This document shows positions 26,038 through 53,666 of a stretch of DNA of 64,000 nt, piece by piece; the stretch's first letter is position 1; the number at the start of each line of letters is the position of its first letter. This DNA comes from Acidobacteriota bacterium. Lineage in GTDB: Bacteria > Acidobacteriota > Polarisedimenticolia > Gp22-AA2. The notes beneath the pieces are model-generated. The model was not told the origin of the DNA. It made no database searches and saw only the letters and a list, made by a program, of their open reading frames with translations. Location: NCBI GenBank assembly GCA_003223135.1, contig QHXX01000026.1, positions 1 to 64,000 of the forward strand, written 5' to 3'. Made by a program: the position numbers and the translations under genes.

Positions 26038-26066
26038 AGTATAGGCCCGCCCCGATCCTCCGTCAA
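26038..26066 (-). promoter_or_regulatory. strong sigma70-type promoter for htrA
   Basis: On the minus strand: TTGACG (26066-26061), a 17-base spacer, then TATACT (26043-26038), leaving a short leader of about 18-20 bases carrying AGGAG. Confidence 0.72.
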
Positions 26067-26095
26067 GGACGCGGGGCGTTCGCGTATGCCTCGCC

Positions 26096-26452
26096 TACGA
26101 GGCGGGCCGCGGCGGGGTGCGCCTCATGCTCGCGCCGCGGATTCGGCGGCCATCTGGCGCGCACGGCGCGGCCCCCCCGTCACCGCTGGTCACCTCAGCG
26201 GGGTACCCTGTTCCGGGTTCAAGCGCTGCACGTCCTGCGACCCGCGCAGGACGGTCGCGACCGGCCCTCGAGCTGACCCAGGCGTCGGAGAAGCCGCGGA
26301 ACGAGGCGCCGCGCCCTGCGTTCGCCGAGCCGTCTGAGACCGCGCGCCGAGGCCCCGCCGCGCGCATTCCAGCGCGGTGGGCGGCGCGTGGCGAAGCGAG
26401 GGGAGCGTCGCGCAGCGAAGCGGACCCGTGCCCGGCGGGAGCAGGGCCGGCG
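26096..26452. repeat. dispersed GC-rich repeat, copy 1
   Basis: This interval between htrA and the response regulator has a second copy at 51423-51723. The core 26329-26452 aligns without gaps to 51600-51723, 124 bases with 7 differences. A flanking block (26096-26147) aligns less closely to 51423-51478. A hairpin is formed around 26342-26388: outer CGCGCC with GGCGCG, inner GCCGCGC with GCGCGGT, and an 8-base loop that differs between copies. A second small stem is GCGTCGC/GCGAAGC (one mismatch here, perfect in copy 2). No gene is called here; a 136-codon minus-strand frame spans it (see findings). Confidence 0.75.
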
Positions 26453-26501
26453 CCTCGAGGCGGGGCCAACTCGACGTGCAGTAGCTCGGGAACCAAGTTC
26501 C

Positions 26502-51404: not shown

Positions 51405-51422
51405 CAAGAGGAACTTCGCCCG

Positions 51423-51723
51423 CGAGGCGGCGGACGCAGCGCGGTGCGGCTCATGCTCGCTCGCGCCGCGTATCCGGCACGTGCCAGACGAACGAGCGGA
51501 GCTTTCCCTGATGTGCGCGGCATGGTCGCGGCAGGTCCTGCAGCAGGCCGGAATGACGGAGTCGGCGAGGATCGAGGCGCCGCCCGCTGCGCCCGCCGGG
51601 CCGTCTGAGACCGCGCGCCGGGGCCCCGCCGCGCGCTTCACAGCGCGGTGGGCGGCGCGTGGCGAGGCGAGGGGAGCGTCGCGCAGCGACGCGGACCCGT
51701 GCCCGGCGGGCGCAGGGCCGGCG
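51423..51723. repeat. dispersed GC-rich repeat, copy 2
   Basis: This is the partner of the repeat at 26096-26452. The core 51600-51723 matches 26329-26452 with 7 differences over 124 bases; 51423-51478 matches 26096-26147 more loosely, with a 4-base insertion (tandem GCTC). The hairpin CGCGCC...GGCGCG / GCCGCGC...GCGCGGT is conserved with a different loop, and GCGTCGC-GCA-GCGACGC is a perfect 7-bp stem here. The repeat ends 12 bases before the start of a MetE-like gene lacking its N-terminus and is open in frame with it. Confidence 0.75.
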
Positions 51724-51735
51724 GCGGAGGACGAG

Positions 51736-52647
51736 ATGACCCGCCTGGCCCTGCGCGAGCAGGCGGAGGCCGGTCTCGACATCATGACCGACGGGCAGAT
51801 CCGGTGGCACGACCCGGTGTCGCACGTGGCGCGCGGCCTGACCGGCTTCCGGATCGAAGGTCTCCTGCGCTACTTCGACACCAACACCTACTACCGGCAG
51901 CCAGCCGCAGTCGGACCGATCGGTCGCGAGCGGCCTGTTCTCGTCGAGGCGTTCCGCTTCGCCGCGGGCGAAGCCGCGCCCCGTCCCGTCAAGGCGATCG
52001 TCACCGGCCCCCTCACGCTCTCCCGCCTGTCCCGCGATGCGCGCGGTCGCGGAAGGCATCACCTGACGCTCGAGGTCGCGTCGGCGCTGAACCGCGAGCT
52101 GAAGGATCTCGAGGCCGCCGGTGCCGATCTCATCCAGGTCGATGAGCCGGCGCCGGCGTGGCTTCCGGCGGATGCGGATCTCCTGCGGCTGGCGATGCGG
52201 CGCCTGGTCGCCGGCCTGACGTCCGCCCGGGTCATTCTCTCGATCACCTTTGGCGACGCGACACCGCTTCTGGCGGAGCTGGCGACGCTGCCCGTGGCGT
52301 TGGTCGGCCTGGACGTGCTGGCCGCACTGGGCCGGATGGGCGCGGCGGGCGCCACCTGCGACGGGGCCGCTGATCTCGGCACCCGTCTGGCGTCCGTGAT
52401 CCCGCCCGGCACGGGTCTGCTCCTCGGTGTGATCGACGGCCGGAATACGCGACTGGAGGAACCGAACGCAACCTACGAGAGCCGCGTGCGGCCGATCCTG
52501 GCGGCCCTGCGCAAAGGCTCGGAGCCTGTGCCCGAGGTGCACCTCGCCCCGAACCACGGCCTCGAGTTCCTGCCACGCGACGCCGCGCGCGCCAAGATGA
52601 CGGCGCTGGCCGCCCTGCGCGACCGGGCGAGGCAGGAGTTCGCATGA
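51736..52647 (+). CDS. MetE-like protein, N-terminally truncated and lacking zinc ligands
   Basis: This 303-residue protein resembles the C-terminal catalytic TIM barrel of cobalamin-independent methionine synthase: RLALREQAEAGLDIMTDGQ, KAIVTGPLTLSRL, LIQVDEPAPAWLP and NTRLEEPNATYESRVRP. Two features are missing. The first strand (the GSFPK region of its neighbour) is replaced by the repeat, and the zinc ligands are absent: HxC becomes SIT in VILSITFGD, and the last Cys becomes His in APNHGLEF. I chose ATG 51736 because GGAGG lies 5 bases upstream; the frame is open back to GTG 51481 through the repeat. Probably not a normal methyltransferase; it may be a partner subunit or a decaying gene. 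Confidence 0.72.
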   Translation: MTRLALREQAEAGLDIMTDGQIRWHDPVSHVARGLTGFRIEGLLRYFDTNTYYRQPAAVGPIGRERPVLVEAFRFAAGEAAPRPVKAIVTGPLTLSRLSRDARGRGRHHLTLEVASALNRELKDLEAAGADLIQVDEPAPAWLPADADLLRLAMRRLVAGLTSARVILSITFGDATPLLAELATLPVALVGLDVLAALGRMGAAGATCDGAADLGTRLASVIPPGTGLLLGVIDGRNTRLEEPNATYESRVRPILAALRKGSEPVPEVHLAPNHGLEFLPRDAARAKMTALAALRDRARQEFA

Positions 52648-53666
52648 ACGATACGGGCCCTCATACCCGCCCCGACGCGCCGGAGGAGCGCGCGCTGCCG
52701 CCCGGTCTCCTCCTGCCGCTCAGCACCATCGGCTCGTTCCCCAAGCCGGAGCGGCTGAAGCGGGCGCGCGCCGGCTTCGCCCGCGGCGAGCTGGACGCGG
52801 AGTCGTTGCGCGGCATCGAGCGGGAGGAAACGGCCGCCTGCATCCGACTTCAAGAAGACCTCGGCCTGGAGCTCCTGGTGGACGGCGAGATGTACCGCGG
52901 TGACATGACGACGTACTTCGCCGAAAACCTCGAGGGGTTCCGGATCTCCGGCCTGGTGCGTTCGTACGGCAACCGTTACTACCGCAAGCCGGTGGTGGTC
53001 GGCGAGGTGCGCTGGAGCCGCCCGGTGACCGTGGAATGGTTCCGCTTCGCGCGCGACCAGACGGCCCTGCCGGTCAAGGCAATCCTGACCGGGCCGTACA
53101 CCATGATGGATTGGGCATTCGACGAGCACTACGGCTCGAGGGAGTCTCTGGCCCTGGCGCTGGCCGACGTCATCCGCCGGGAGGCGGAGGCGCTGGTCGA
53201 GGCGGGGGCGCGCTACGTCCAGATCGACGAGCCGGCGATCTCGGTGCGGCCGGACGAGATCGATCTCGCCATCCGCGCCATGCACCGCGTGACCGAAGGT
53301 CTGCGCGCCCGAACGATCACCCACATCTGCTACGGAGACTTCGCGGCGATCTACCCCCGCCTGCTCGACCTGCCGGTCGAGCAATTCACCCTGGAGATGT
53401 CGAACTCCGACCTCGGCCTCCTCGATCTCTTCAAGACGTCCCCCTTTACGAAGGAGCTGGGCGCCGGGGTTCTCGACGTCCACAGCCATGCGATCGAGAC
53501 GGTCGAGGTGGTGAAGAATCGCATCCTGGCGGCGCTGAAAGTCGTCCCGGTGTCCCGCCTGTACATCAACCCCGACTGCGGCCTCAAGACGCGCACCCCG
53601 GAGGAGGCGGAGGCCAAGCTCAGGAACATGGTCGCGGCGACGCGCGAGGTGCGGCAGACACTGTGA
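52644..53666 (+). CDS. MetE-like methyltransferase (core, zinc ligands kept)
   Basis: This 340-residue protein carries the complete catalytic barrel: LPLSTIGSFPKPERLKRAR at the N-terminus, LLVDGEMYRGDM, KAILTGPYTMMDWAF, YVQIDEPAISVRPDE, then zinc ligands in THICYGDF (HxC) and NPDCGLKTR (Cys). It lacks the folate-binding N-terminal half of full MetE, so the methyl donor is probably not methyltetrahydrofolate but a corrinoid or other methyl compound, as in short core-MetE proteins. The start overlaps the stop of the paralogue (ATGA), implying coupled translation and possibly a heterodimer. Confidence 0.86.
   Translation: MNDTGPHTRPDAPEERALPPGLLLPLSTIGSFPKPERLKRARAGFARGELDAESLRGIEREETAACIRLQEDLGLELLVDGEMYRGDMTTYFAENLEGFRISGLVRSYGNRYYRKPVVVGEVRWSRPVTVEWFRFARDQTALPVKAILTGPYTMMDWAFDEHYGSRESLALALADVIRREAEALVEAGARYVQIDEPAISVRPDEIDLAIRAMHRVTEGLRARTITHICYGDFAAIYPRLLDLPVEQFTLEMSNSDLGLLDLFKTSPFTKELGAGVLDVHSHAIETVEVVKNRILAALKVVPVSRLYINPDCGLKTRTPEEAEAKLRNMVAATREVRQTL

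What the first reader, a model, noticed from the sequence alone, without database searches (positions are those of the whole stretch)
26096..26452. A GC-rich dispersed repeat with conserved hairpins occurs twice in one window
26329-26452 matches 51600-51723 over 124 ungapped bases with 7 differences (94% identity), and flanking blocks extend the likeness to about 300-350 bp. The strongest hairpin (outer CGCGCC/GGCGCG, inner GCCGCGC/GCGCGGT) keeps its stem in both copies while 3 of the 7 differences fall in the 8-base loop. A second stem is perfect in copy 2. Two copies in 64 kb imply many in the genome. There is no transposase, terminal-repeat or CRISPR character. This could be a new palindromic/REP-like family or a structured RNA.
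Basis: partly seen in the sequence, partly recalled or inferred. Interest (0 to 1): 0.75.

Follow-up and report, generated by a model that had tools for sequence, protein, structure and literature searches.

The report
Promoter-homing mini-transposon with folded ends
The repeat is the folded end of a small non-coding jumping element, found in one family of soil and groundwater Acidobacteriota, that lands 12 letters upstream of the core promoter of housekeeping genes; its two ends fold into hairpins that evolution has kept paired.

Summary
In detail: the two copies are 94% identical over 124 bp, and the genome holds about 13. But they are not free-standing REPs or an RNA gene.

Each is one end ("module A", about 150-200 nt) of a non-autonomous transposon (MITE), typically 190-540 bp. 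The other end is another A, a second hairpin family (B), or a remnant. Both ends finish in the same inverted repeat, CTGAGNNATCCCCRG. Insertions duplicate 9 bp, and relatives have empty sites.

Insertion is tied to promoters. In 11 of 14 TSD-bearing elements one end (never both) lies exactly 12 nt from a sigma70 -35 hexamer (9-bp TSD + 3 nt). An unbiased pattern scan of 396 Acidobacteriota genomes gives gap 12 in 11/16 matches in this family and 1/42 elsewhere.

Such targeting is known for Mutator-type ISLre2/TnGBS and ISKra4 elements (PMC3942029), so the mobiliser is probably ISKra4-like. I could not find or search for it.

What has no match in Rfam is the end structure: 61 pairs, 40 with double compensatory changes, score 0.31 versus 0.10 shuffled, and G-U far exceeding A-C on the outward strand. 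Its role is unknown; I favour insulation against passing transcription, at low confidence.

The parts
26079..26473 (+). MITE copy 1 (whole element, ends decayed)
   Evidence: Left end placed by the 12-nt rule and a degenerate terminal repeat (TTCGCGTATGCC vs CTGAGGTATCCC); right end by the degenerate terminal motif after module A. The relative G002 has an empty site: 18 bp instead of 424 bp, flanks 85%/79% identical.
26105..26172 (-). Module B (second hairpin family), partial, outward-facing
   Evidence: nhmmer profile hit; about 106 BLAST matches in the five genomes of the genus.
26299..26443 (+).
   Evidence: nhmmer profile hit; covariance-model hit 26306-26453, 115.9 bits.
26061..26066 (-). 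-35 hexamer (TTGACG) of the degP-like gene, exactly 12 nt from the element's left end
   Evidence: Sequence; module B to -35 distance 38 as in the other B copies.
26038..26043 (-). -10 hexamer (TATACT), 17-nt spacer
   Evidence: Sequence; promoter also present in relatives with the empty site.
26067..26078 (.). 12-nt gap; 26070-26078 is the presumed target-site copy. No matching copy is left at the right end.
   Evidence: Inferred from the 12-nt rule; the right flank ACGTGCAGT does not match, so the duplication is decayed or was lost.
51407..51715 (+). MITE copy 2 (remnant), replacing the promoter and the first codons of a MetE-like gene
   Evidence: Relatives G002 and G004 keep 267 and 190 bp there, including a start region (VILASILNSYPRIGDRPAEQ in G002).
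51433..51478 (-). Module B remnant of copy 2
   Evidence: nhmmer profile hit.
51570..51714 (+). Module A core of copy 2
   Evidence: nhmmer profile hit; covariance-model hit 51587-51715, 111.5 bits.
51733..52647 (+). 5'-truncated MetE-like gene left by the insertion
   Evidence: Pfam Meth_synt_2 from profile position 42 on and Meth_synt_1; relatives keep the missing N-terminus.

Best explanation
The repeat is the end module of a family of MITEs in one family of Acidobacteriota. A typical intact element is: terminal inverted repeat plus outward-facing hairpin module (A, B or a relic), a short centre, and a second such end. A DDE transposase supplied in trans moves it, probably of the Mutator-like ISKra4 type. 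It inserts with a 9-bp duplication covering about -47 to -39 of an existing sigma70 promoter, either end facing the promoter, so the core promoter stays intact (a safe-harbour strategy). Shown here: mobility (empty sites, TSDs), fixed promoter spacing, structure-preserving evolution of the hairpins. Inferred: the identity of the transposase, guidance by promoter-bound RNA polymerase, and the role of the hairpins. For the hairpins I favour a structure that forms in outward-running transcripts, or in single strands, and insulates the element end and neighbouring promoter from passing transcription.
For: Presence/absence with conserved flanks: degP locus 18 vs 424 bp in G002, HU locus 0 vs 373 bp, rplU and tRNA loci likewise, with the promoters already present in the empty sites. 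Terminal motif shared by A and B. 14 elements with 9-bp TSD at 7/9 or better, three of them perfect (L060 TGCGTCTCG, L212 CCCCGCCGC, L238 CTTTGCCGG); 11 have the -35 at exactly 12 nt on one side only, expected 0.015 from the background promoter frequency. 26 of 56 terminal-motif ends face a promoter, 16 of these at exactly 12 nt, versus 4 on the reverse strand. Independent B loci fetched after the rule was noted cluster at the same distance, 37-39 nt from the profile end. Unbiased pattern scan: gap 12 in 11/16 in the family, 1/42 in 388 other genomes, Fisher 2e-7. The same promoters are hit in different genera: rplU in three genera, degP in two. Covariation: 396 double-change cells vs 101 shuffled (0/500), score 0.312 vs 0.066 or less when slid.
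Against: No autonomous copy or transposase was found. DDE_Tnp_1 is absent from six of the eight genomes, and the Mutator-type families were not searched. The two window copies are decayed: no TSD, poor terminal repeats. Roughly half of the terminal-motif ends have no detected promoter; part of that is expected, since only one end faces it. Covariation can also arise from DNA-level correction of long palindromes.
Confidence: 0.88

Rival explanations
1. A structured non-coding RNA gene or cis-regulator, vertically inherited and functional where it sits upstream of promoters.
For: Strong covariation with conserved unpaired motifs (UGAGA/CGAA, GAGGGGAG, GGACCCG); some copies are shared at the same site by two species (L082/L074, L101/L096).
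Against: TSDs, terminal repeats, empty sites and gene disruption show insertion. Elements lacking both modules occur (L238). Orientation and module type differ at the same promoter in different genera.
Confidence: 0.06
2. REP/BIME (REPIN) repeats mobilised by a RAYT (Y1) transposase.
For: Outward-facing hairpin pairs and mosaic modules resemble BIMEs.
Against: No PF01797 in 8 genomes with working controls; modules are 105-200 nt, not 20-40; there are 9-bp TSDs and terminal inverted repeats.
Confidence: 0.02
3. The MITE belongs to the IS4/IS10 group rather than to ISKra4; its promoter preference is an independent invention.
For: The terminal repeat CTGAGNNATCCCC resembles the IS10/ISVsa5 end CTGAGAGATCCCC, checked in plasmids; IS10 also makes 9-bp duplications (PMC10359306).
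Against: IS10 is not known for promoter targeting; no DDE_Tnp_1 in six of the eight genomes. ISKra4/ISLre2-type elements also have 8-9 bp repeats, a terminal C, and a 13-17 bp promoter distance (PMC3942029).
Confidence: 0.25
4. The stem covariation is not RNA selection but a product of DNA-level palindrome correction (template switching between arms).
For: Outer-stem arms differ freely between copies yet are often perfectly complementary, e.g. the G002 copies of the tRNA locus.
Against: G-U exceeds A-C on the outward strand in P1 (50/20), P2 (21/5), P3 (42/0) and B (22/7); short helices P1b and P4 covary too.
Confidence: 0.3

Closest known systems
ISKra4 group (p-MULT 4) and ISLre2/TnGBS (p-MULT 3), Mutator-superfamily elements (PMC3942029)
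   Same: 8-9 bp direct repeats; inverted repeats with terminal C; insertion at a fixed 13-17 bp upstream of sigmaA -35 boxes; symmetrical repeats give both orientations.
   Different: Here non-autonomous, 190-540 bp, no transposase found; large covarying hairpin modules at the ends; restricted to one Acidobacteriota family.
IS10/ISVsa5 (IS4 family)
   Same: End begins CTGAGNNATCCCC; 9-bp duplication.
   Different: Known IS10 targets are not promoter-positioned; no IS4-type transposase in most of these genomes.
REP/BIME/REPIN elements with RAYT
   Same: Extragenic, palindromic, outward pairs, mosaic modules.
   Different: Much larger, TSD-forming, no Y1 transposase.
Correia and other bacterial MITEs (review PMC10969869)
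   Same: Short intergenic elements near promoters, no coding capacity.
   Different: Correia elements carry their own promoters; here the promoter pre-exists and the spacing is fixed.
HEARO / IscB-associated RNAs
   Same: Dispersed structured elements.
   Different: No RRXRR (PF14239) found (no positive control rang) and no HEARO or other Rfam hit.

Membership tests
MITE (non-autonomous DNA transposon) | Terminal inverted repeats | tested here: met
   CTGAGNNATCCCCRG at both ends, 10-14 of the first 15 bases identical between ends.
MITE (non-autonomous DNA transposon) | Target-site duplication | tested here: met
   9 bp, 14 elements at 7/9 or better, three at 9/9.
MITE (non-autonomous DNA transposon) | Presence/absence polymorphism | tested here: met
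   Empty sites at five loci in up to five relatives.
MITE (non-autonomous DNA transposon) | No transposase inside; mobilised by an autonomous relative | tested here: inconclusive
   No ORF inside, but no autonomous partner found.
ISKra4-group (p-MULT 4) element | Mutator-type DDE transposase | not tested
ISKra4-group (p-MULT 4) element | 8-9 bp direct repeats, inverted repeats with terminal C | tested here: met
   9 bp; outermost base C in most ends.
ISKra4-group (p-MULT 4) element | Fixed distance (13-17 bp) upstream of the -35 | tested here: met
   12 intervening nt, so the -35 starts at base 13.
IS4/IS10-group element | IS10-like end sequence and 9-bp duplication | tested here: met
IS4/IS10-group element | DDE_Tnp_1 transposase in the genome | tested here: not met
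   Absent in G000-G003, G005, G007; the single G006 copy has different ends and no terminal repeat of this kind was found for the G004 one.
REP/RAYT | Y1 (PF01797) transposase | tested here: not met
Known Rfam RNA family | Covariance-model match | tested here: not met
HEARO/IscB element | RRXRR protein | tested here: inconclusive
   None found, but no control genome rang.

The most novel reading that the evidence does not exclude
Modules A and B are a new class of structured RNA (or single-strand) carried by a promoter-homing MITE and needed for its life cycle, for example by binding promoter-bound RNA polymerase or the transposase so that the fold itself helps choose the promoter target.
Probability: 0.1. 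Interest if true: 0.85.

Novelty: new variant of a known kind. Interest (0 to 1): 0.55.

Why it matters
Exact promoter-relative insertion is a rare property among bacterial transposons, reported for two Mutator-type lineages. Here it appears in a short non-coding element whose insertions can be read directly from genomes and which hits housekeeping promoters (rplU, rplM, HU, tRNA, degP) in several genera. That makes the question of how such transposases read a promoter testable with a minimal substrate. It also offers a family of palindromic ends in which structure-keeping evolution can be studied, and a sequence rule (end + 12 nt + TTGACA) for finding active promoters in uncultured bacteria.

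Tried and rejected
Rfam at the gathering threshold and at E<=10: nothing. RAYT/Y1 and IscB RRXRR: none. Coding function: the ORFs across the repeat are GC-rich read-throughs. Viral and mobile origin: the core pattern is absent from viral contigs, and a looser 5' pattern gave six unexplored hits; no match in phages or plasmids. A functional upstream element selected for its place: rejected as the main reading, because empty sites carry the same promoters and because either module in either orientation is found. 'The element carries its own -35': rejected, because the 12 nt between end and -35 is target sequence (9 bp of it duplicated) and the promoter pre-exists. Autonomous copy: terminal-repeat pairs more than 1 kb apart had no TSD, the G006 and G004 DDE_Tnp_1 genes lack these ends, and the centre of L238 leads only to other MITEs. 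Terminal-repeat search in plasmids: chance hits only. Multiple alignment at the HU locus failed because the reference was too short; redone pairwise.

Full report
OBSERVATION. The two window copies are as described: 26329-26452 and 51600-51723 are 94% identical over 124 bases, inside a 209-bp block at 84%. The 3.7-Mb genome (G000) holds 14 BLAST hits, 13 by covariance model. Six of the other seven genomes of its family also hold copies (3 to 43 by model); G006 has none. Among all 41 genomes held for the class, the only hit outside the family is one weak one in a sister family. A pattern scan of 84,980 GTDB genomes hits only Acidobacteria MAGs, labelled gp22 or NC_groundwater. Rfam has nothing.

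STRUCTURE. In 64 copies the module has five helices: an outer stem P1 of 25 bp or more; P1b, with an invariant bulged U and a conserved UGAGA/CGAA internal loop (possible tandem G-A pairs); P2; P3; and P4. RNAalifold finds 30 of 48 pairs with double compensatory changes. On a structure I wrote by hand, 40 of 61 pairs show them: 396 double-change cells against 101 in shuffles (0 of 500 reach it), score 0.312 against 0.10 shuffled and 0.066 or less when slid. The structure was partly derived from these sequences and the copies are related, so the shuffle figure is not a p-value; but P1, P1b and P4 each show several pair types. G-U mismatches exceed A-C mismatches on the outward strand in P1 (50/20), P2 (21/5) and P3 (42/0), and in module B (22/7; 7/11 on its reverse strand). 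That points to folding of that strand, as RNA or ssDNA.

THE UNIT IS LARGER. In G005 most copies come as inverted, outward-facing pairs 107-231 bp apart. Beyond both A and B lies the same terminal motif, C[CT]GGGGAT[AG][CG]CTCAG, at fixed register: the outer stem of each module runs into the terminal inverted repeat CTGAGNNATCCCCRG (ends compared). Pairing left and right motifs gave 98 candidate pairs, of which 14 have a 9-bp duplication at 7/9 or better (null rate 4%); three are perfect: L060 TGCGTCTCG, L212 CCCCGCCGC, L238 CTTTGCCGG. L238 has the ends and centre of L212 but neither hairpin module, so the modules can be lost (or were gained) without erasing the record of movement.

MOBILITY. 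Flanks of the G000 copies were located in seven relatives and compared. At degP (window copy 1) G002 has 18 bp where G000 has 424; at the HU gene 0 against 373; rplU, tRNA and TetR-type loci also have empty relatives. At window copy 2 the element replaced the promoter and first codons of a MetE-like gene that G002 and G004 still keep, leaving a 5'-truncated gene. It is therefore a mobile element that has also done damage.

PROMOTER SPACING. I first saw that outward flanks of A and B often hold a sigma70 promoter reading away: 33 of 72 A and 8 of 17 B, against 6 and 1 on the reverse strand, with a clustered distance. Twenty further loci chosen for B behaved alike. Anchored on the terminal motif, the distance is exactly 12 nt in 16 of 26. 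Among the 14 TSD-bearing elements, 11 have the -35 exactly 12 nt from one end, never from both; expected 0.015 from the background frequency of such promoters in these loci (the background in intergenic DNA is higher, but would need to be hundreds of times higher). The layout is terminal repeat | 9-bp duplication | 3 nt | TTGACA, i.e. the duplication covers about -47 to -39, roughly the proximal UP/alpha-CTD subsite (position from my own knowledge). An unbiased scan with end motif, gap of 4-28 and TTGAC in 396 Acidobacteriota genomes gave 16 matches in this family, 11 with gap 12 and four more at 11-14; 42 matches elsewhere are spread, one at 12. The promoters pre-exist in the empty sites, and the 12 nt is target sequence. 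Downstream genes include rplU, rplM, HU, a cold-shock protein, a tRNA and degP (the tRNA read from sequence). rplU was hit in three genera and degP in two, with differing modules and orientations. In the window, copy 1 obeys the rule at the degP-like gene: -35 at 26061-26066, element from 26079, although its own ends and duplication have decayed.

MECHANISM. Fixed spacing could come from targeting or from selection. Selection explains why insertions closer than 12 nt are missing, not why they are rare farther away. So I infer targeting, most simply by a transposase that reads the promoter or promoter-bound RNA polymerase. The direct precedent is Guerillot et al. 2014 (PMC3942029): TnGBS/ISLre2 and the ISKra4 group insert 13-17 bp upstream of sigmaA -35 boxes, make 8-9 bp repeats, have a terminal C, and with symmetrical ends insert in both orientations; they too proposed contact with RNA polymerase. 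All features tested here fit ISKra4-type ends. The end sequence also resembles IS10, which makes 9-bp repeats, but IS4-type transposases are absent from most of these genomes.

THE HAIRPINS. Their role is open. They sit between the element's interior and the promoter it adjoins, fold on the outward strand, and are kept paired while their outer arms change letters. I favour insulation against passing transcription, at low confidence; palindrome correction at the DNA level may explain part of the outer-stem pattern.

VERDICT. A real, family-restricted, promoter-homing MITE of probable ISKra4 type, with unusual covarying end hairpins: a new variant of a known kind.

Noticed in passing
window 51481-52647: An open frame runs from the remnant of MITE copy 2 into the truncated MetE-like gene; a second, full-length MetE-like gene follows at 52644-53666. 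The truncated one may be a pseudogene or may have gained a start inside the element.
   Followed up: partly
L193 (G002, tRNA locus): Two B-type modules whose outer stems have completely different but perfect arm sequences (e.g. GGTGGCGTGGGAGTCAGGGGCG/CGCCCCTGACTCCCACGCCACC): arms turn over fast while staying paired.
   Followed up: partly
G005:C148:19713-19767, C1:17134-17188, C127:287-341: About 55-nt derivatives matching both ends of the covariance model, i.e. apparently the outer stem with the core deleted.
   Followed up: no
G007 elements, e.g. the L060 end away from module A: A third end module (CTGAGATATCCCCAGTTTGGGGCGCAGGCCCCGCCGCG...) that is neither A nor B; the element family is wider than these two modules.
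   Followed up: no
L258 (G006) and L259 (G004): The only DDE_Tnp_1 transposases in the eight genomes; L258 is flanked by 24-bp inverted repeats GCTAGGCTCAATGCCGGTTAGTTA, unlike the MITE ends.
   Followed up: partly
G003 and G007, e.g. G007:C93, C123, C235: Further ends of the pattern with gap 12 to TTGAC but no A or B module seen, i.e. more promoter-adjacent insertions to map.
   Followed up: no
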